This document shows, piece by piece, positions 38,311 through 49,055 of a stretch of 64,000 bases of DNA; positions within the stretch are counted from its first letter, which is position 1, and each line of letters begins with the position of its first letter. A program made the position numbers and the translations under genes. Under the pieces are notes generated by a model. It was given only the letters and a program-made list of their open reading frames with translations. It did no database searches and had not been told where the DNA came from. Location: contig NZ_VFAC01000019.1 in assembly GCF_007644105.1 (NCBI RefSeq), forward strand, positions 1-64,000. Reading direction: 5' to 3'. Source of the DNA: Elioraea rosea. GTDB lineage: Bacteria > Pseudomonadota > Alphaproteobacteria > Acetobacterales > Acetobacteraceae.

Positions 38311-38357
38311 GGTCCTTGTCGTTGTGCGCCGCAGGGCGCCGGTGGGATAGTGCCCGA

Positions 38358-39014
38358 ATGGAACGAGTGATCGACGATTTCCTGCTGGCCTTCGTGGCGC
38401 TCCTGTCGATCATCAACCCGGTCGGGCTGGTCTTCGTGTTTCGCGAGATGACGGTCTGGGCGGCAGCTTCGGAGCGGAAGAAGCTCTCCTCGCGCATTGC
38501 CATCTATGCGCTCGCGGTGATGCTGTGCAGCTACTTCTTCGGCACCTTCGTGCTCGCCTTCTTCGGCATCACCCTGCCCGTGCTGCGGATCGCCGGCGGC
38601 CTCGTCGTCGCCTCCGCCGGCTGGGGTCTCCTGCAGAAGAGACCCGAGCAGGAAGCGGCGCCGGCGGCGATGGATACCGCGCCGATCATGCAGATGGCCT
38701 TCTATCCCCTGACCATGCCGCTGACGACGGGCCCCGGCACGATCGCGGTCTCGATCGCGCTCGGTGCGGCGCGAACCGAGCGCGAGGGCGCGCTGATCGT
38801 CTCCGCGGTCGGCGGCTTCGTTGCCGCTGCCGTCGTGGTCGCGGCGATCATCCTGCTCTTCTACCGCAACGCAGACAGGATCGTCCGGCTCGCCGGCAAC
38901 GAGGGGGCGAGGGTGGTCACGACACTCTCGGCCTTCCTGCTTCTCTGCGTCGGAATCCAGATCATGGTCACGGGCGTGATCGAGGTCGCGCGGCTCGCCA
39001 TGGCGCCCGCGTGA
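38358..39014 (+). CDS. MarC-family integral membrane protein
   Basis: 218 residues from the ATG at 38358. Six hydrophobic spans are visible (about residues 7-27, 44-63, 67-87, 108-126, 141-163 and 180-204). The MarC features INPVGLVFVFREM in span 1 and YPLTMPLTTGPGTIAVSIALG in the middle repeat are clear, showing the inverted-repeat NP(x)G and TTGPGT pair. Despite the old name it is not tied to multiple antibiotic resistance; transport substrates are unknown. It converges with the antiporter gene, 11 bases apart. Confidence 0.9.
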   Translation: MERVIDDFLLAFVALLSIINPVGLVFVFREMTVWAAASERKKLSSRIAIYALAVMLCSYFFGTFVLAFFGITLPVLRIAGGLVVASAGWGLLQKRPEQEAAPAAMDTAPIMQMAFYPLTMPLTTGPGTIAVSIALGAARTEREGALIVSAVGGFVAAAVVVAAIILLFYRNADRIVRLAGNEGARVVTTLSAFLLLCVGIQIMVTGVIEVARLAMAPA

Positions 39015-39025
39015 GGCGCCGCCGC

Positions 39026-40717
39026 TCATGCGGCGACGAGGTTGACGATCACCGTGCCCCATGACGTCAGCAGGATGTGCCCGATCGGCACGGCGGGGGT
39101 GTAGCCGAGGACGGAGACGGTGCTGCCCGAGCGCTCCTGAACGGCGGCCATCGCGGCCGTCATCGTCTGGCCGCCCGCGAGGGCGCCGAGCAGGAGCTGC
39201 GGGTGCAGCTTCAGCACATGGTGGCCGAAATAGAGCCCGACGATGAGCGGCACCATCGTCACCACCATGCCGCCGAGCAGAAGGCCGATCCCTGCCTCGG
39301 CGATGGCCTGGAAGAAGATCGGCCCGGCATGCAGCCCCGTCATCGCGACGAAGGCGGCAAGCCCGAGCGCGGTCATCAGCGCGATCGCGCCGTCGGGAAT
39401 TCGGCCGAACAACGGGTACCGCGTGCGGAGATGGCCGACGACCAGCCCGGCCAGAAGCGTGCCGACGCTGGTCGAGAGCGAGATGCGCATTCCCCCGATC
39501 GGAATCGTCACGAGCACGCCGACGAGCCCGCCAAGGAAGATGGCGAGCCCGAGCACGACGAAATCGGTCTGCTCCGTCGGGCGGACGATCGGGCCGATCA
39601 GCTTCGCCGCGCGCTCGACGGTGGGCACCGCACCGACCACCGTGAGCACGTCGCCGCGCAGGATCTCCGTGCCCGGGGCGATCGGGATCTCCTGCCCGCC
39701 ACGCGTGATGGCGCGAAGATAGACGCCGCGCGAGGTCTCTGCCGTCGCGAGCTCTGCAAGCGTCCTGCCGGCGATGGCACGCGACGTCACCAGCACATCG
39801 ACGACGCTGACGACGATATCGAGCAATTCGCGGTCCTCGACCTCCTCGCGCTGGCGGCCGATCAGGTCGACCAGCACCTCGCGCCGGCCGGACACGGCGA
39901 CGATGTCGCCTGCCTCCAGCCTGTCGTCGAGCGCCAGGTCGCGGCACCCATCGCCACGCCGCACGCGGTGCAGGAAGATGCGCTGCGGCAAGGCGCCCTG
40001 CTCGATCTCGGCGACGGTCTTGCCGACCGCCGGGCCGCCCTCGGTCACGCGATAGGCGCGCAGCTCGAACCGGCGCCAGGCCGATGCCGTCCCGGGCGCC
40101 TGATGGGTGATGCCGAGCTCCGCCTCGAGCGCGCGGGCGGAGGCGACGAGGTCGGCCCCGATCAGCTTCGGCGCGAGGGAACTGAGGAACCAGATCATCC
40201 CTGCCGCGCCGAACAGGTAGCAGACCGCGTCGGCCACCGCGATGTGGGCGACGAAGCGGGCACGGTCCGCCTCGGGGATGGGCAGCGCGTTGATCGCCTC
40301 CGTCGCCGTGCCCATGGCAGGGCTCTCTGTGAGCGCGCCGGAAACCAGGCCCGCCGCGAAGCCGGGGTCGAGCCCGAGGAGCTTGGCGACGGCGAAGGCC
40401 GTGCCCAGGCCGGCGACGGACATCACCACCGCGACAAGCACGGGCTTCAGCCCGTCCCGCTTCAGGGCCTGCATGAACTGCGGCCCGACCGAGTAGCCGA
40501 TGCCGAACAGGAACAGCAGGAACAGGATCGACTTCGCCGTGCCGGAGACCGGCACATGCGCGACCTGCCCCACCGCGATGCCGGCGAAGAGCGACCCGGT
40601 GACGGGCCCGAGCTTCAGCGGCCCGAGCTGCAGCGAACCGATCCAGTACCCGATGCCGATGACGAGGAAGAGCGTGAGCTCGGGATACTTGACGAGGAAC
40701 TCCTGGGCCCACGCCAT
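39026..40717 (-). CDS. AspT/YidE-family antiporter, paralogue 2
   Basis: 563 residues from the ATG at 40717 with GGAGG upstream; a GTG at 40729 is also open. Two membrane halves of about five spans each flank a soluble centre with two TrkA-C-like (RCK_C) regulatory domains (about residues 205-370: VGKTVAEIEQGALPQRIFLHRV, AGRTLAELATAETSRGVYLRAI). The AspT signature GYSVGPQFMQALKRDG follows span 4, and GALAGGQTMTAAMAAVQERSGS is in the second half. AspT-family proteins exchange an amino acid for its decarboxylation product. It starts 16 bases after the stop of paralogue 1. Confidence 0.9.
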   Translation of the reverse strand: MAWAQEFLVKYPELTLFLVIGIGYWIGSLQLGPLKLGPVTGSLFAGIAVGQVAHVPVSGTAKSILFLLFLFGIGYSVGPQFMQALKRDGLKPVLVAVVMSVAGLGTAFAVAKLLGLDPGFAAGLVSGALTESPAMGTATEAINALPIPEADRARFVAHIAVADAVCYLFGAAGMIWFLSSLAPKLIGADLVASARALEAELGITHQAPGTASAWRRFELRAYRVTEGGPAVGKTVAEIEQGALPQRIFLHRVRRGDGCRDLALDDRLEAGDIVAVSGRREVLVDLIGRQREEVEDRELLDIVVSVVDVLVTSRAIAGRTLAELATAETSRGVYLRAITRGGQEIPIAPGTEILRGDVLTVVGAVPTVERAAKLIGPIVRPTEQTDFVVLGLAIFLGGLVGVLVTIPIGGMRISLSTSVGTLLAGLVVGHLRTRYPLFGRIPDGAIALMTALGLAAFVAMTGLHAGPIFFQAIAEAGIGLLLGGMVVTMVPLIVGLYFGHHVLKLHPQLLLGALAGGQTMTAAMAAVQERSGSTVSVLGYTPAVPIGHILLTSWGTVIVNLVAA

Positions 40718-40732
40718 CGCCGCCTCCACCCG

Positions 40733-42433
40733 CTACTGCGCGAGAAGCATCGCGAAGTAGCCGAACACCGTCAGCAGCACGCCCGAGACCGCGTAGCCGA
40801 CGGGGAAGCCGATCCACGGCACGTTGGACTGGATCTCCACTGCCGCCTCGCGGCACGGCCCGGAATGGCTTCTAGCCCCGGCGACACCGCCCATCAGCAC
40901 GGCGGGGTTGATGCGGAACACGTGGTAGCCGATCGCCCACACGATCACCGGCGGCACCGAGCAGGCGACGAAGCCGACGAGGAAGATCTTGAGCGCGAGC
41001 ACGCCGGTGAGCTGCGCGAGAAGCGAGTTGCCCGCGTTGATGCCGACGATGGCGACGAAGACGACGAGACCGAGATCCTCGAGAACGTTGCGCGCCGCAG
41101 TCGGCGTATTGCCGAAGAACCTGAGCCGGGAGGAGAGCGACGAGACGATCACCCCTGAAACGAGAAGCCCGCCCGCGTTGCCCAGCCCGATGCTGGCGCC
41201 GAAGGCCGGGAAGCTGATCGCGCCGATCAGGAAGCCGAGGATCATGCCGAAGGAGAGGGTGAACAGGTCGGTCGCCACGGAGGGGCGTACGACGCGGCCG
41301 AAGGTCTGGCCGATGCGGTCGACCGCGTCCTTGAGGCCGACGATCGTCACGACGTCCATGCGCTGCAGCGTAGTGTTCGAGCCGATCGGAACCGGCACGC
41401 CGCCACGCTCGATCTTCTGCACCTGGACCTGGTCGGCGCCGGGAAGGGCGCGCCACTCGTCGCGAGTCTTCTGCAGCATCTCCTTGTTGGTGATCAGCAC
41501 TTCCGCCTGGTCGAGCGGAATGTCGAGCGCGAGCCGGTCCGACACTTCCGGCCCGATCAGGCCCATCTTCTCCGTCATCGCCTCGCGGCGGCCGCCGAGG
41601 GCGATCACGTCGCCGAGCCGCAGCGGCTCCTCCTGCGCCGCGCCGAGCGCTGCGCCGTCGCGCACGAGGTTTGCGAAGCGGTACTCGGGGTTCTCGCGCA
41701 GGAGTTCGCGCATCGTGCGGCCGACCCAGGCCGTGTTCTCGAGCCGGTAGGCGCGAAGCGCGCCCGGTGTCCAGCCAGACAGGGCAGGACTGTCGCCCGA
41801 GGCGACGCCGTGCTCCTTCTCGTAGGCGCGGGCGGCGGCCTTCGCATCGATGCCCCACCAGGCGGGGAGGTACTTGGTGATCAGGATGATGCCGACGGTG
41901 CCCCAGATGTAGGTGATGCCATAGGACAGCGCGATCATCGCCGTGACCTGCTCGGCCGTCGTGCCCTCTGGCAGGCGCACCACGCCGGCCGTCACAGCCT
42001 GCTCGGCCGAGCCGATCGCGGCAGACATGGTCTGCGAGCCGGCCAGCATGCCGCCGGCTGCACCCGGGGGAAGTTCGAGGATGCGCGCGCCGAGCACGAC
42101 GATGGCGAGCCCGATCACGCAGGAGACGATCGCGAGGAAGGTGAACTTGATGCCGTCGCCGCCGAGGCTGTTGACGAAGGACGGCCCGACGCGGAGCCCC
42201 ACGCCGTACATGAAGAGATAGTAGAAGAGGCTCTTGGCAAAATTGTCGAGCGCGAGCGTGACGCCGTACACGCTCGCCCACACCGCGAGGCCACAGCCGA
42301 TGATGATGGCGGATGCCACCATGCCGAGCCCGTAGCCCGCGATGCTCTTCCTGCCGAGCCATACGGCGAGACCCACCGTGAGGAACAGCAGGATGAAGGG
42401 GTTTGCGGCGAGGAACTGGAAGAACGCTTGCAT
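40733..42433 (-). CDS. AspT/YidE-family antiporter, paralogue 1
   Basis: 566 residues. It shares the layout of its neighbour: membrane half, two RCK_C-like domains (WVGRTMRELLRENPEYRFANLV, ITNKEMLQKTRDEWRALPG), membrane half. Signature stretches are MYGVGLRVGPSFVNSLGGDG and GGMLAGSQTMSAAIGSAEQAV in the first half, and GGVAGARSHSGPCREAAVEIQ in the second. It begins 20 bases after the decarboxylase stop, so the three genes form an operon. By analogy with the Tetragenococcus aspartate system, it probably imports a substrate amino acid and exports the product, generating proton-motive force. Confidence 0.9.
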   Translation of the reverse strand: MQAFFQFLAANPFILLFLTVGLAVWLGRKSIAGYGLGMVASAIIIGCGLAVWASVYGVTLALDNFAKSLFYYLFMYGVGLRVGPSFVNSLGGDGIKFTFLAIVSCVIGLAIVVLGARILELPPGAAGGMLAGSQTMSAAIGSAEQAVTAGVVRLPEGTTAEQVTAMIALSYGITYIWGTVGIILITKYLPAWWGIDAKAAARAYEKEHGVASGDSPALSGWTPGALRAYRLENTAWVGRTMRELLRENPEYRFANLVRDGAALGAAQEEPLRLGDVIALGGRREAMTEKMGLIGPEVSDRLALDIPLDQAEVLITNKEMLQKTRDEWRALPGADQVQVQKIERGGVPVPIGSNTTLQRMDVVTIVGLKDAVDRIGQTFGRVVRPSVATDLFTLSFGMILGFLIGAISFPAFGASIGLGNAGGLLVSGVIVSSLSSRLRFFGNTPTAARNVLEDLGLVVFVAIVGINAGNSLLAQLTGVLALKIFLVGFVACSVPPVIVWAIGYHVFRINPAVLMGGVAGARSHSGPCREAAVEIQSNVPWIGFPVGYAVSGVLLTVFGYFAMLLAQ

Positions 42434-42453
42434 GGCTCTGTCCTCCCCCGCGC

Positions 42454-45159
42454 TCAGCGCGACCGCCGCGCGCCGACGCTGTCTGGCTTCAGCAACTTCA
42501 GCCCCCGCGCCCGCTCGTAGCCATGGATCTCCTTCACATCGAGCTTGCGCATGAAGGTGATCGTCTCGGGCGTCAGCACCTGGCCGGGAACCATGATCGG
42601 AAAGCCGGGCGGATAAGGGATGACGAAGTTGGCCGAGACCATCTCGGGCCCTTCGGCCAGCCGCCTGTCGCATTCGTCGCCGAACAGCGGCACGTACTCG
42701 CAGCCCTCCTCGTCATAGGCGGAGAAGAAGGCCGTGCGCATGTCGCCTTCCGGCGTGCGCTCGCCCGCATCGGTGCGGAACACCTGGTGGAACCGGCTGA
42801 AGTTCGGCAGGTCCGGCACGTCCTCCATCAGGCTCTTCACGCGCGCGGCGAAGGCCTTCCGTCCTTCCTCGCCGCCATGCGCGAGGCGCTTCTCGATCTC
42901 GGTGCAGATCTCGAGCAGCACGCGGATGAGATGGGCGACGTCGCTTCTCGTGTTGTTGATGTTCGACTGGAGAAGCACCGAGTTGCGCGAGGTCTTGTTG
43001 AGCTGGATGTCGTACTTGCCCGCGAGCAGCCCCTTGAACTGCGTGCCGTCGAACCCGGCCCTGCCGCAGACGAGCGTCATGCGCGTCGGGTCGAGGATGA
43101 ACTCGTCCTCCTCAATGCTCCTCAGCGCGTCGCCCCAGGTCGCCCCCGAGACGAGGTAATCGACGAAGCCGCTCTGGCGATACTCGGCGGGGATCATCTC
43201 GTCGGCGCCGGCGACGTGGAAGTATTTCGAGATGATCGGGTGCGCGTTCACCTCGCGGCGGATGTCGAGCGCGATCTCGATCGCGTTCAGCACCAGTCCG
43301 TAGCCTTCGAGCTCCATCTGCCGCCGCGCGACATCCATCGAGGCGATCAGCTGCTGGTTCGGGCTGGTGGAGGCATGCGTGAACACCGCCTCGTGGAACT
43401 GGCTCTCGACGCGGTGGAACTCGACATCACGCACCAGCACCATCGAGCCCTGGCGGATCGCCGACATCGACTTGTGCGTCGAGTTCGTCTGGTAGACGCG
43501 GAGGCGGATCCTGCTCGGATCGGGCACCAGCCGTGCCGCCAGCAGTGCCTCATCGGATGGGTCGGGCCCGAGTTCCTTCGCCTGCGCCTCGTACTGATCG
43601 ACGGCTTGCTTGGAATGCATCCATCTTTCGATCGCCTCGGCCGCGCCCATCGCCGTGCGCGGGCGGAGGAAGGGCGACCAGTGCGCGAAGCCCGACCACG
43701 CCTCGTCCCAGAGGAAGATCAGGTCGGGCTTGATGGCGAGGCATTCCTCCATCACGCGCCGGGTGTTGTACATGTGGCCGTCGAAGGTGCAGTTCGTCAG
43801 GTCAACCATCTTCACGCGGTCGAGCCGTCCTTCCGCCTTGGCGGCAAGAAGGGCCTTCTTGATCGACGCGAGCGGCACCGCGCCGTACATCGAGTACTGC
43901 GTCAGCGGGAACGCCTCGACATAGAGCGGCTGCGCGCCGTTGAGAACGCAGCCGTAATGGTGCGACTTGTGGCAGTTGCGGTCGAGGATGACGATGTCGC
44001 CCGGGCCGAGCAGGGCCTGGTGCACCATCTTGTTCGACGTGCTGGTGCCGTTCGTCACGAAGAACACGTGGTCGGCGCCGAACGCGCGGGCGGCAAGCTC
44101 CTGCGCCTTCTTGATGTTGCCCGTGGGCTCGAGAAGGCTGTCGAGGCCGCCCGTCGTCGCGCTGCTTTCCGCGAGGAACAGGTTGATGCCGTAGAACTCG
44201 CCCATGTCGCGGATCCAGGCGGACTTGAACACCGACTTGCCGCGCGCGATGGGCAGGGCATGGAAGGTCGCGATCGGCCGCTGCGCGTATTTCTTGAGGT
44301 TGTCGAAGAACGGCGTCTGGAACCGCTCGGAGATGCCCTCCATCACCGAGAGATGCAGCTCCAGCATCTCCTCGATCTGGTACATGACGCGGCGGATCGG
44401 CGCGCTGCGCGGGTCGCCAGCGAGCGCTTCCACCCGCCTGTCGGAGAGCAGATAGATGTCCAGCTCGGGGCGGGTGTTCTTGATGCCGTTGGCGAGCTTG
44501 AGCGCGAGGTCGGCATCGTCTGCCGTCGCGGGATCGACCTTGCCTTCGAGGATCTGCCGGAGCACCGGCGCGTCATGTCGTGAGCGGAGCGCGAAGCCTT
44601 CGTAGATCGTCACTGCTGCGATGTTGGGGTTCAGCATGATCGCGCAGATCGCGTCCTCGAGGCTGCCGACGGGCACCACCTCGTAGACGAATGGGTCCTC
44701 CGGGCGGCGGAGCTTGCGCATCTCCGACACGAGATGCGGGTAGCGCGCCGGCGGCACGGGCGTGACCATCAGCATCTCGAAATAGGGCCGCGCGTGCACC
44801 GTGGCCGCTGTTGGCGGCATCGCCTCGGACAGGGCGTCGGGCTGCTCGTCGGTCAGGTCCCATTCGCCGAGTTCCTCGCGGTAGCTCTGCGCGGCGATCG
44901 ACGTCGAGATGCGCCTGGCCAGGGCGGCGGTGCCAGGTGCGTCGTCGCGTCCGATCTTCTCGGCCAGCGCCGCGATCAGGCGTGCCCCGGGATAGGCATA
45001 GAATTCCTCGGTGGCCCCGAGCCCCGCGAAGTGCGTATCGACCGACGCCCGATCGCCCCTCCCTGCAGCCCAGGCCTTCGCGGCGGCATGCAGGTCACGC
45101 CAGCGGTCGTTCCGCGCGGCCGGGGTGGTGAAGAAGCTGTCGATACGGTGCTTTGGCAT
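42454..45159 (-). CDS. Orn/Lys/Arg-type PLP decarboxylase, long form
   Basis: 901 residues from the ATG at 45159; the open frame beyond lacks a site. The PLP lysine is in YQTNSTHKSMSAIRQGSM, about residue 560. The fold-type I core includes FFVTNGTSTSNKMVHQALL, LDRNCHKSHHYGCVLNGAQP and DLIFLWDEAWSGFAHWSPF, with the cofactor-binding aspartate. The C-terminal domain contains GYERARGLKLLKP. It is longer than typical 710-760-residue ornithine, lysine or arginine decarboxylases, with an extended N-terminus of about 130 unfamiliar residues. It consumes a cytoplasmic proton per turnover. The true amino acid is not clear. It heads a three-gene operon with two AspT antiporters. Confidence 0.9.
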   Translation of the reverse strand: MPKHRIDSFFTTPAARNDRWRDLHAAAKAWAAGRGDRASVDTHFAGLGATEEFYAYPGARLIAALAEKIGRDDAPGTAALARRISTSIAAQSYREELGEWDLTDEQPDALSEAMPPTAATVHARPYFEMLMVTPVPPARYPHLVSEMRKLRRPEDPFVYEVVPVGSLEDAICAIMLNPNIAAVTIYEGFALRSRHDAPVLRQILEGKVDPATADDADLALKLANGIKNTRPELDIYLLSDRRVEALAGDPRSAPIRRVMYQIEEMLELHLSVMEGISERFQTPFFDNLKKYAQRPIATFHALPIARGKSVFKSAWIRDMGEFYGINLFLAESSATTGGLDSLLEPTGNIKKAQELAARAFGADHVFFVTNGTSTSNKMVHQALLGPGDIVILDRNCHKSHHYGCVLNGAQPLYVEAFPLTQYSMYGAVPLASIKKALLAAKAEGRLDRVKMVDLTNCTFDGHMYNTRRVMEECLAIKPDLIFLWDEAWSGFAHWSPFLRPRTAMGAAEAIERWMHSKQAVDQYEAQAKELGPDPSDEALLAARLVPDPSRIRLRVYQTNSTHKSMSAIRQGSMVLVRDVEFHRVESQFHEAVFTHASTSPNQQLIASMDVARRQMELEGYGLVLNAIEIALDIRREVNAHPIISKYFHVAGADEMIPAEYRQSGFVDYLVSGATWGDALRSIEEDEFILDPTRMTLVCGRAGFDGTQFKGLLAGKYDIQLNKTSRNSVLLQSNINNTRSDVAHLIRVLLEICTEIEKRLAHGGEEGRKAFAARVKSLMEDVPDLPNFSRFHQVFRTDAGERTPEGDMRTAFFSAYDEEGCEYVPLFGDECDRRLAEGPEMVSANFVIPYPPGFPIMVPGQVLTPETITFMRKLDVKEIHGYERARGLKLLKPDSVGARRSR

Positions 45160-45275: not shown

Positions 45276-45289
45276 TTGACGCAGGTCAA
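45276..45289 (-). promoter_or_regulatory. FNR/FixK-like box upstream of the decarboxylase operon
   Basis: TTGACGCAGGTCAA is a perfect inverted repeat (TTGAC-N4-GTCAA) matching the FNR/FixK/Nnr family pattern TTGAy-N4-rTCAA. It is centred 123 bases ahead of the decarboxylase ATG. A start of transcription near 45241 would place it at -41.5, the classic activating position. Binding is predicted, not shown. Confidence 0.55.
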
Positions 45290-46276: not shown

Positions 46277-46693
46277 TCAGCGCTGCTGGACGGACTCGAG
46301 ATAGACCAGCAGCTCGGAAATCCGACCATAGACGTAGGTGCTCGGCGAGGTGCCCTGCGGCTGGCCCCGCTGCTCGATCTCGAGGATCGCGCCCCAGGCA
46401 GGCATCTCGCGCGTGCCGTGCGCGGGCACCGCCGTCCTGCCCTCGATCATCTTGAACGCCTCGTAGAACGGGAACTGTCCGCCATTGCGACGCGACATCG
46501 TCGTCAGGTCGGTCGGCTTGGCGGTAAGGACATTGGCCAAGGGGCCGCCGCCCTTCGCGTCGATGCCATGACATTGCGCGCAGGCGGACTGGTAGAAGGC
46601 CTGCCCGCTCCGCAGTGTCTGCGTGTCGGTTGCATGAGCCGCGCCCGCGCCAAGTGTCACGGACGTCATCAAGAAAAGCCACGATCCACGCAT
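46277..46693 (-). CDS. Secreted mono-haem cytochrome c, paralogue 2
   Basis: 138 residues from the ATG at 46693 with GAGGGGG 5 bases upstream. The signal peptide is RGSWLFLMTSVTLGAGAAHA. One haem site CAQCHG lies near residue 38, followed by IDAKGGGPLANVLTAKPTDLTTMSRRNGGQFPFYEAF. An axial methionine candidate is in TREMPAWGAIL. The C-terminus is YGRISELLVYLESVQQR. It is the same length as, and clearly related to, the gene directly upstream, so the pair arose by duplication. It is a periplasmic electron carrier or oxidase/dehydrogenase subunit; the partner is unknown. Confidence 0.9.
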   Translation of the reverse strand: MRGSWLFLMTSVTLGAGAAHATDTQTLRSGQAFYQSACAQCHGIDAKGGGPLANVLTAKPTDLTTMSRRNGGQFPFYEAFKMIEGRTAVPAHGTREMPAWGAILEIEQRGQPQGTSPSTYVYGRISELLVYLESVQQR

Positions 46694-46718
46694 CACGTCC
46701 CCCTCATGACGGAGTTCC

Positions 46719-46750
46719 ATCCGACCACCGCCGGCCGGCGGTGGTCGGAT
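46719..46750 (-). terminator. Perfect 32-bp palindrome between tandem cytochrome genes
   Basis: ATCCGACCACCGCCGG (46719-46734) is immediately followed by its exact reverse complement (46735-46750). It begins 8 bases after the upstream cytochrome stop and ends 25 bases before the next ATG. As RNA it would form a very stable hairpin that could terminate or protect the first cytochrome message, giving unequal expression of the pair. Confidence 0.6.
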
Positions 46751-47273: not shown

Positions 47274-47423
47274 CGGCCGGGCCGGAGCCGGTCCTGTTCC
47301 GGCTTTCGGGGTTGCGGCCCGGCCGAAACGGCGTCTAGGCTTCCGGCGGAACGATCCAAAAGAAAACAGGTGCCGCGCCTCGTCGCGGCGCATGAAGGCG
47401 CTTGTCGCCGGGGGAGGACAGGG

Positions 47424-49055
47424 GTGAAGCTTGGCGAAGCCATCGCCGAGATCATGAAGCGCGAAGGCATCGAGGTGCTGACCGGCTATCCGGTCAATCA
47501 CCTGATCGAGTACGCGGCGGCGATCGACATTCGCCCGATCATGGTCCGACAGGAGCGCATCGGCCTGCACATGGCGGACGCGATCTCGCGCGTCACCTCC
47601 GGCCGGCAGATCGGTGCGTTCTGCATGCAGCATGGACCGGGTGCGGAGAACGCCTATGGCGGCGTCGCCCAGTGCTATGGCGAGAGCGTACCCGTTCTCG
47701 TCCTGCCCATGGGCTACCCGCGCCGGCTCGCCCATATCGACCCGAACTTCAACTCCTCCGTGCAGATGCGCGGCATCACCAAGTCGGCCGAGCCGATCGT
47801 GCTCGCCTCCGAGGTCTGCGCGGTGATGCGCCGGGCCTTCACGCGGCTCCGCAATGGCCGGGGCGGCCCCTGCCTCGTCGAGATCCCGGCCGACATGTGG
47901 AACGAGGAGGTGGCGGGGCCGCTCGACTACACGCCCGTGCTGGCCACCCGCTACGGCCCCGACCCGGCCGATGTCGAGCGTGCCGCGGCGCTTCTCGCGG
48001 GGGCGAAGCGGCCGGTGATCTATGCCGGCCAGGGGGTGCACTGGGCCAAGGCCTGGCCGCAGCTCCGCAAACTGGCCGAGCTTCTCGCCGCGCCGGTGAC
48101 CACGAGCCTCGGCGGCAAGAGCGCGTTCCCCGAGAACCACCCGCTCGCGCTCGGCTCCGGCGGCCTCGCCGTGCCGGCGACGGTGCCGCATTTCCTGAAG
48201 GCGGCCGACGTCATCCTCGGAATCGGCTGCTCCTTCACCGAGAGCAGCTTCGCTGTGGCGATGCCAAAGGGAAAGCGCATCATCCACGCGACGCTCGACC
48301 CCGATCATCTGAACAAGGACGTTCCGGTCGAGATCGGCCTTGTCGGTGACGCGGCGCTGACGCTCGATGCGCTGCTCGACGCGCTTGCCGACAGGGTGAA
48401 GGAGACGCGCGACCCGTCGTCGGTCGCCTCCGAGATCGCCTCGGTGCGCGAGGCCTGGCTCGCGCAATGGGCGGAGAAGCGCGACAGCGAGGCGAGCCCG
48501 CTGTCGCCCTACCGCGTGCTGCGCGACCTCGCAGGCACGGTCGATCTGGCCAACACCATCATCACCCACGATGCCGGCAGCCCGCGCGACCAGCTCTCCC
48601 CCTTCTGGGTGGCGAGCGAGCCGCTGTCCTATCTCGGCTGGGGCAAGACGACGCAGCTCGGCTACGGGCTCGGCCTCGCCATGGGCGCGAAGCTGGCCGC
48701 TCCCGAGAAGCTCTGCATCAACGTATGGGGTGATGCAGCGATCGGCTTCACGGGCATGGATTTCGAGACGGCGGTGCGCGAGCGCATCCCCATCCTGTCG
48801 ATCCTGCTCAACAATTTCTCGATGGCGATCGAGCTCAAGGTGATGCCGATCTCGACGGAGAAGTTCCGCTCGACCGACATCAGCGGCGACTATGCCGCGA
48901 TGGCCCGGGCCTTCGGCGGGCATGGCGAGCGGGTCGAGCGCGCGGCCGACATCGTTCCCGCGATCAGGCGCGGCATCGCCGCGACACGGGAAGGCAAGCC
49001 GGCGCTGGTCGAGTTCATCACGGCAAAGGAAACGGCGGTGTCGCGGATCGCCTGA
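47424..49055 (+). CDS. Thiamine-diphosphate-dependent enzyme, acetolactate-synthase-like
   Basis: 543 residues from a GTG at 47424 with GGGGGAGGA upstream; the frame is open to 47370 without a site. It has the three ThDP-enzyme domains. The activating glutamate is in IMVRQERIGLHMADAISRV, and the N-terminal PYR domain reads GAFCMQHGPGAENAYGGVAQ. The central domain has KRPVIYAGQGVHWAKAWPQL. The ThDP-Mg motif is the GDAAIGFTGMDFETA stretch followed by ILLNNFSM. Function could be a carboligase, decarboxylase or hydrolase on a 2-oxo acid. It lies 39 bases ahead of the ABC importer operon, suggesting it works on the imported compound. Confidence 0.85.
   Translation: MKLGEAIAEIMKREGIEVLTGYPVNHLIEYAAAIDIRPIMVRQERIGLHMADAISRVTSGRQIGAFCMQHGPGAENAYGGVAQCYGESVPVLVLPMGYPRRLAHIDPNFNSSVQMRGITKSAEPIVLASEVCAVMRRAFTRLRNGRGGPCLVEIPADMWNEEVAGPLDYTPVLATRYGPDPADVERAAALLAGAKRPVIYAGQGVHWAKAWPQLRKLAELLAAPVTTSLGGKSAFPENHPLALGSGGLAVPATVPHFLKAADVILGIGCSFTESSFAVAMPKGKRIIHATLDPDHLNKDVPVEIGLVGDAALTLDALLDALADRVKETRDPSSVASEIASVREAWLAQWAEKRDSEASPLSPYRVLRDLAGTVDLANTIITHDAGSPRDQLSPFWVASEPLSYLGWGKTTQLGYGLGLAMGAKLAAPEKLCINVWGDAAIGFTGMDFETAVRERIPILSILLNNFSMAIELKVMPISTEKFRSTDISGDYAAMARAFGGHGERVERAADIVPAIRRGIAATREGKPALVEFITAKETAVSRIA

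What the first reader, a model, noticed from the sequence alone, without database searches (positions are those of the whole stretch)
39026..45159. Decarboxylase with two different AspT-family antiporters in one operon
A 901-residue Orn/Lys/Arg-type decarboxylase is followed, 20 and 16 bases apart, by two full-length AspT-like transporters. Known decarboxylation/antiport cycles use a single antiporter. Two paralogues suggest either a heteromeric antiporter or two exchange reactions, and the extended N-terminus of the decarboxylase is unfamiliar. This may be an undescribed acid- or energy-coupling system in an aerobic lineage.
Basis: partly seen in the sequence, partly recalled or inferred. Interest (0 to 1): 0.6.

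Follow-up and report, generated by a model that had tools for sequence, protein, structure and literature searches.

The report
Decarboxylase operon with two amino-acid antiporters
A three-gene bacterial operon pairs an amino-acid-decarboxylating enzyme of unknown substrate with two different amino-acid exchangers, and it probably lets the cell gain energy or resist acid when oxygen runs low.

Summary
In detail: a 901-aa OKR-type decarboxylase (DC) and two full-length AspT-family transporters, T1 and T2, lie in one minus-strand operon with gaps of 20 and 15 bp. The DC-AspT link is conserved: of 77 clade-A loci with 4.5 kb or more on both sides (window included), 70 carry an AspT and 49 carry two; 18 loci of a more distant DC branch carry none. 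T1 and T2 lie in separate AspT clades. T1 and another type, T2b1, replace each other beside the DC (at least 9 switches) and share no locus seen; the window's T2 type was never found alone. This favours two exchange reactions over an obligate heteromer. The long N-terminus is not new: Rv2531c of M. tuberculosis, structure solved, activity unknown, has it. All ten PLP-site positions checked are kept, but CadA's proposed lysine-binding Glu is Asn, and new Arg are invariant, which suggests an acidic substrate (Asp or Glu). An FNR/FixK box precedes the operon; one also precedes ccoN in this genome, so low-oxygen induction is likely here, though most relatives lack the box. Verdict: a real, conserved decarboxylation/antiport module, a new variant of a known kind. 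Substrate and transport are untested.

The parts
42454..45159 (-). Decarboxylase (DC), 901 aa, OKR_DC_1 fold, Rv2531c-like; predicted PLP lysine K563
40733..42433 (-). T1: AspT-family antiporter, 566 aa, 'primary' type; Arg at the position of T. halophilus AspT R76
39026..40717 (-). T2 (T2a clade): AspT-family antiporter, 563 aa, above the aspartate-alanine antiporter equivalog cut-off
45276..45289 (-). FNR/FixK-type box TTGACCTGCGTCAA, 130 to 117 bases before the DC start codon
   Evidence: the same 14-mer is listed for FixK2 target bll4412 in PMC9104804 (passage)
38316..39014 (+). MarC-family membrane protein, convergent with the operon; MarC also lies beside the T2a gene in some relatives; possible accessory, link unproven

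Best explanation
The operon encodes a decarboxylation/antiport cycle. AspT-family exchangers bring in an acidic amino acid (aspartate somewhat likelier than glutamate). The DC removes its alpha-carboxylate, consuming a cytoplasmic proton, and the less negative product (beta-alanine or GABA) leaves by exchange. The net effect is an indirect proton pump: inside-negative charge movement plus internal alkalinisation. T1 is the DC's main partner. T2 is a second exchanger for a different exchange (another substrate or product, or another affinity), not an obligate subunit of T1. In this genome an FNR-type regulator probably switches the operon on when oxygen falls. Shown here: gene order, conservation, replacement of one primary AspT type by another, conservation of the PLP site, loss of CadA's proposed lysine-binding Glu, presence of the box. 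Inferred: substrate, product, direction, charge movement, induction.
For: Linkage: an AspT in the DC's direction starts within 400 bp after it, or ends within 450 bp before it, in 79 of 90 clade-A loci; no AspT in 18 clade-B loci. T1 (34 loci) and T2b1 (42) share no locus; T2a (26) is with T1 in 8 and with T2b1 in 18. The primary type changes at least 9 times on a FastTree tree of 88 DC rows. AspD (aspartate 4-decarboxylase) lies within 9 kb in 23 clade-A loci, 22 of them with T2b1. Active site: 10 of 10 chosen CadA PLP-site positions identical; CadA E526 is N721, V524 is Q719, a conserved C-terminal Glu is Q860; R306, R569 and R725 are Arg in 13 of 13 members and in none of AdiA, CadA, SpeF. 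E526 and V524 are proposed lysine-binding residues (PMC5607190, passages). Regulation: box in 24 of 90 clade-A loci, against 0.029 per 480 bp over the same loci, and before ccoN in this genome.
Against: No biochemical data on any member. The three Arg were picked by me from 11 columns with K/R in the family and not in the three E. coli enzymes, for lying near known motifs; the pocket was not seen in 3D: no coordinates in hand, and pLDDT is under 50 at 293-316, 321-341 and 565-568. Rv2531c has Ile at R725. AdiA also lacks the Glu (Thr), so arginine is not excluded. AspD is not tied to T2b1 alone: of 12 AspD-AspT loci without the DC, 9 hold AspT genes that best match T2c or T2b2 and 3 T2b1. The box is absent upstream of the DC in 66 of 90 clade-A loci, and the 24 come from two lineages. 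In 7 of 77 well-flanked loci the DC has no AspT nearby. T1 is below the aspartate-alanine equivalog cut-off (397 against 547 bits).
Confidence: 0.5

Rival explanations
1. Acid-resistance rather than energy module: same chemistry, but the benefit is proton consumption in acid, as in GadB/GadC; the substrate may be glutamate.
For: Single-AspT versions occur in Acetobacter and Gluconobacter, which live in acid (general knowledge). Decarboxylation consumes a proton in either case.
Against: The only regulatory signal found in the window is an FNR/FixK-type box, and another such box in this genome stands before ccoN. No pH signal was looked for.
Confidence: 0.25
2. T1 and T2 form one heteromeric antiporter.
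For: Tight operon (gap 15 bp); the T2a type was not found without another AspT (26 of 26 loci).
Against: T1 alone (9 loci, 6 with full flanks) and T2b1 alone (17 loci, 12 with full flanks) occur; T2a pairs with T1 or T2b1, which are far apart in the tree; the characterised AspT is a dimer of one protein (PMC9527358, passages).
Confidence: 0.08
3. The DC is an ordinary basic amino acid decarboxylase (Arg, Lys or Orn), as its family name suggests.
For: OKR_DC_1 fold and family hits; PMC12910592 calls Rv2531c distantly similar to arginine decarboxylases (passages). AdiA has Thr, not Glu, at the E526 position.
Against: The proposed lysine-binding Glu is Asn and new Arg are invariant; I know of no AspT-family member that carries cationic amino acids (general knowledge).
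Confidence: 0.15
4. The DC mainly supplies beta-alanine for pantothenate, replacing PanD, and the AspT genes are only loosely linked.
For: No PanD (PF02261) match in this genome, while 8 of 14 control genomes have one; five Bradyrhizobium loci keep the DC without a nearby AspT.
Against: Of 2 other genomes of the genus only 1 has the DC; most clade-A loci keep AspT close; an oxygen-controlled promoter is odd for a housekeeping vitamin step.
Confidence: 0.08

Closest known systems
Aspartate 4-decarboxylase/AspT (asp) operon, as in Tetragenococcus and Lactiplantibacillus
   Same: PLP decarboxylase beside an AspT-family exchanger; same logic of an indirect proton pump; AspD-AspT-AspT clusters also exist
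   Different: AspD is a different, aminotransferase-like enzyme (TIGR03801) and has no member above cut-off in this genome (best 47.8 bits against 435.1); here the decarboxylase is of the OKR family
Rv2531c of Mycobacterium tuberculosis (PDB 9n0n, 9n0o, 9n0p)
   Same: Homologous over residues 44-890, including most of the N-terminal part; foldseek TM 0.92 by target for 9n0o
   Different: Its activity is unresolved (PMC12910592, passages); residue R725 is Ile there; whether AspT lies beside its gene was not looked at
Inducible decarboxylase/antiporter pairs CadA-CadB, AdiA-AdiC, SpeF-PotE
   Same: OKR-family decarboxylase near an antiporter gene
   Different: Different transporter family (recalled), basic substrates, shorter N-terminus; CadA E526 is replaced here

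Membership tests
OKR (Orn/Lys/Arg) decarboxylase family PF01276 | Major-domain profile above curated cut-off | tested here: met
   233 bits against 27
OKR (Orn/Lys/Arg) decarboxylase family PF01276 | PLP-site residues of CadA, including catalytic Lys367 | tested here: met
   10 of 10 chosen positions identical in P0001; K367 is K563
Lysine/ornithine decarboxylase specificity | Acidic residue at CadA E526 for the distal amine | tested here: not met
   N721 in 13 of 13 aligned members; N in 89 of 90 clade-A and 17 of 18 clade-B rows
Rv2531c-like decarboxylases | Near full-length homology including the N-terminal part | tested here: met
   E about 2e-222, residues 44-890; foldseek top ten hits are 9n0o/p/n chains
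AspT family (Asp-Al_Ex with TrkA_C) | Both domains in each transporter | tested here: met
   both proteins
Aspartate-alanine antiporter equivalog TIGR03802 | Score at or above 546.95 bits | tested here: inconclusive
   T2 558.4 bits (met), T1 397.2 bits (not met)
Canonical asp operon | Aspartate 4-decarboxylase (TIGR03801) in the genome | tested here: not met
   best 47.8 bits, cut-off 435.1
Decarboxylation/antiport cycle | Exchange of the decarboxylase's substrate for its product | not testable with these tools
   needs a proteoliposome assay
FNR/FixK-controlled operon | FNR/FixK palindrome upstream and an FNR-type regulator in the genome | tested here: met
   box at 45276-45289; a Crp/Fnr-family protein with an N-terminal C-x2-C-x7-C at L157; that this spacing marks oxygen sensors is recalled
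FNR/FixK-controlled operon | Induction at low oxygen | not testable with these tools
   needs expression data

The most novel reading that the evidence does not exclude
The Rv2531c-like branch of the OKR family has switched to acidic substrates, most likely aspartate alpha-decarboxylation to beta-alanine. With AspT-type exchangers it forms an undescribed Asp/beta-alanine (or Glu/GABA) decarboxylation/antiport cycle that aerobic alphaproteobacteria use for energy under low oxygen, with a second exchanger for a second exchange. It would also give the substrate class of Rv2531c.
Probability: 0.3. Interest if true: 0.7.

Novelty: new variant of a known kind. Interest (0 to 1): 0.5.

Why it matters
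It predicts a substrate class for a decarboxylase family whose one solved member (Rv2531c) has no known activity. It also points to a low-oxygen energy or acid-relief cycle in soil, plant-associated and acetic acid bacteria usually regarded as aerobes. The natural replacement of T1 by T2b1 beside the same enzyme, and the pairing of T2a with either, make the question 'why two exchangers?' directly testable.

Tried and rejected
Heteromeric antiporter as the main reading: set aside because single-AspT versions occur and T2a goes with either of two distant primary types. 'Extended N-terminus is new': rejected. Apparent internal TGA codons in four AspT matches: terminal stops in all four. AspD elsewhere in this genome as owner of the second AspT: none above cut-off. 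Active-site geometry from the AlphaFold model: not usable (no model file in the Python box). Boxes of the window and G001 do not line up: they stand about 10 bases apart in the alignment of the two upstream stretches. Literature: I saw listings only (4 papers; 30 of 306; 20 of 1,274; no paper; 25 of 97); no listed title or abstract start describes an OKR decarboxylase with AspT. The cryoEM paper on Rv2531c is not held; I know of it from PMC12910592 and the PDB titles. One Bradyrhizobium low-oxygen paper (PMC6515984) was word-searched: no 'antiporter' or 'decarboxylase' in its main text.

Full report
WHAT IS THERE. Three minus-strand genes lie head to tail: DC (901 aa), T1 (566 aa) and T2 (563 aa), with gaps of 20 and 15 bp. 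Pfam places the DC in OKR_DC_1 and both transporters in Asp-Al_Ex with TrkA_C. T2 passes the aspartate-alanine antiporter equivalog cut-off; T1 does not. The two transporters are about 32% identical, so not a recent duplication. The genome showed one DC and only these two AspT genes, no aspartate 4-decarboxylase above cut-off and no PanD match.

THE DECARBOXYLASE FAMILY. The DC matches PDB 9n0n/9n0o/9n0p over residues 44-890; one search names these as Rv2531c of M. tuberculosis. A 2026 review says that the cryoEM study did not clarify its activity (PMC12910592, passages). The AlphaFold model (mean pLDDT 80.8) matches 9n0o with TM 0.92 by target length. The long N-terminus is therefore a family trait.

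DISTRIBUTION. In an even draw of 397 genomes of the phylum, 19 have the DC at E <= 1e-60, one being the window's; in the class draw it is 11 of 387, the window's included; in the set of 60 nearest (window's included) only the window's genome and one other of the genus have a full-length match. I call clade A the DCs with 55% identity or more to P0001 and clade B those at about 40-50%. In the flanks fetched, 8 of 9 clade-A loci have two AspT genes and one has one; none of 19 clade-B loci has any. In all, 90 clade-A loci (window included) and 18 clade-B loci were compared from then on (one half of a split clade-B gene, L055, dropped); Bradyrhizobium is over-represented and two rows, L058 and L106, have identical DCs. 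Of 77 clade-A loci with 4.5 kb or more on both sides, 70 have at least one AspT within 7.5 kb and 49 at least two; 0 of 18 clade-B loci have one. Well-flanked loci without AspT: L089, L101, L107, L111, L112, L113, L133.

TWO TRANSPORTERS. A tree of 134 AspT rows (130 from loci, 4 references; quick method, one support value, long reference branches) gives the clades T1, T2a, T2b1, T2b2 and T2c, with a few rows outside. T1 (34 loci, counting L129, where T1 is split by a frame break; a T1 fragment at the contig edge of L147 is not counted) and T2b1 (42; the broken-up row of L124 not counted) share no locus. T2a, the window's T2, is in 26 loci, 8 with T1 and 18 with T2b1. On a FastTree tree of 88 DC rows the primary type (T1 or T2b1) changes at least 9 times. 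Inside Bradyrhizobium, L110 has T2b1 and AspD where relatives have T1, and L115 has an inverted T2a-T2b1 pair and AspD there. AspD lies within 9 kb of the DC in 23 loci, 22 with T2b1 and none with T1. T1 orthologues (58% or more) occur in 8 places in 397 genomes, 7 beside a DC and one in a divergent pair with another AspT and no DC or AspD in 18 kb. At the position of T. halophilus AspT R76 (numbering checked with G62 and P79 of PMC9508256 on the alignment; R76's role is known to me from a reference title seen) T1 has Arg in 33 of 33, T2a Ser in 22 of 26, T2b1 Gly or Ala in 42 of 42; T2a also has Asp where T1 and T2b1 have Tyr, each in 90% or more. A Lactiplantibacillus AspT beside AspD has Glu at that position, so this position alone does not set the substrate. 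I read the pattern as one primary exchanger plus an optional second exchanger with another exchange. AspD with two tandem AspT genes and no DC (L179, L181, L182, L183) shows that two AspT genes beside one decarboxylase are not unique to this family.

SUBSTRATE. All 10 CadA PLP-site positions that I chose are identical (the choice was recalled, with Trp333, Ser364, His366 and Lys367 named in PMC5607190, passages). CadA E526 and V524, proposed lysine-binding residues (same passages), are N721 and Q719, and a C-terminal Glu shared by AdiA, CadA and SpeF is Q860. R306, R569 and R725 are Arg in 13 of 13 members and in none of the three E. coli enzymes; they are three of 11 columns of that kind, picked because they lie near known motifs, and E526 and Q860 are two of 17 columns where acids are lost. 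In 108 rows exceptions are one to three per position and group; each group holds one row out of frame (L124, L054) and some partial rows, but I did not check row by row. AdiA has Thr at E526, so this site alone does not exclude arginine. Rv2531c keeps R306, R569, N721 and Q860 and has Ile at R725. With AspT known for electrogenic aspartate/alanine exchange (PMC9508256, abstract start and passages), Asp is the likeliest substrate, then Glu. This is inference.

REGULATION. TTGACCTGCGTCAA lies at 45276-45289, before the DC start. TTGAYN4RTCAA occurs within 450 bp upstream of the DC in 24 of 90 clade-A and 0 of 18 clade-B loci; the mean over the same loci is 0.029 per 480 bp. The 24 are the window, G001 and Bradyrhizobium-type loci: two lineages, not a family-wide feature. 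Dinucleotide shuffles of the upstream stretch gave the box in 0 of 2000 (window) and 1 of 2000 (G001). The genome has 15 such palindromes against 3 for the reversed pattern. I looked at the 14 others: one stands before ccoN (TIGR00780, 763 bits) with DUF2189 on its other side, one before a Crp-family regulator gene, one beside a CBS/BON gene; the other 11 gave no telling neighbour in this quick look. A Crp/Fnr-family protein with N-terminal C-x2-C-x7-C is present (meaning recalled). The FixK2 consensus TTGA/C-N6-T/GCAA fits, and the identical 14-mer is listed for bll4412, changed -20.7-fold in a fixK2 deletion (PMC9104804, passages). In Bradyrhizobium loci boxes also stand near T2c and other genes of the same island.

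MECHANISM. Import of an acidic amino acid, alpha-decarboxylation by the DC using one proton, export of the less acidic product: an indirect proton pump as in the asp system, probably switched on at low oxygen in this genome. Gene order, conservation, residue changes and box are shown; substrate, products, charge movement and induction are inferred.

VERDICT. A real, conserved module, a new variant of decarboxylation/antiport systems. I saw no description of it in the search listings named above, which cover open papers only and were cut to the top rows.

Noticed in passing
38316-39014: A MarC-family gene is convergent with T2 here; MarC also stands after T2a in G001 (L044) and in Phyllobacterium loci (L072, L084, L092, L097).
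   Followed up: partly
L101, L107, L111, L112, L113: A Bradyrhizobium branch keeps the DC with its FixK-type box but has no AspT beside it.
   Followed up: no
L178:6787-10466: A second T1-type gene sits in a divergent pair with another AspT, with no DC or AspD in 18 kb.
   Followed up: partly
L179, L181, L182, L183: AspD beside two tandem AspT genes, without the DC.
   Followed up: partly
L106, L100, L045 and other Bradyrhizobium-type loci: The DC lies in an island with SulP, an EipA-like gene, PPK2, HlyD-type and DUF3300/DUF2950 genes, several with FixK-type boxes near their starts.
   Followed up: partly
46277-46720 and 47370-49055: A c-type cytochrome gene (46277-46720, minus strand) and a thiamine-diphosphate enzyme (NCBIfam PRK06154, plus strand) lie upstream of the operon.
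   Followed up: no
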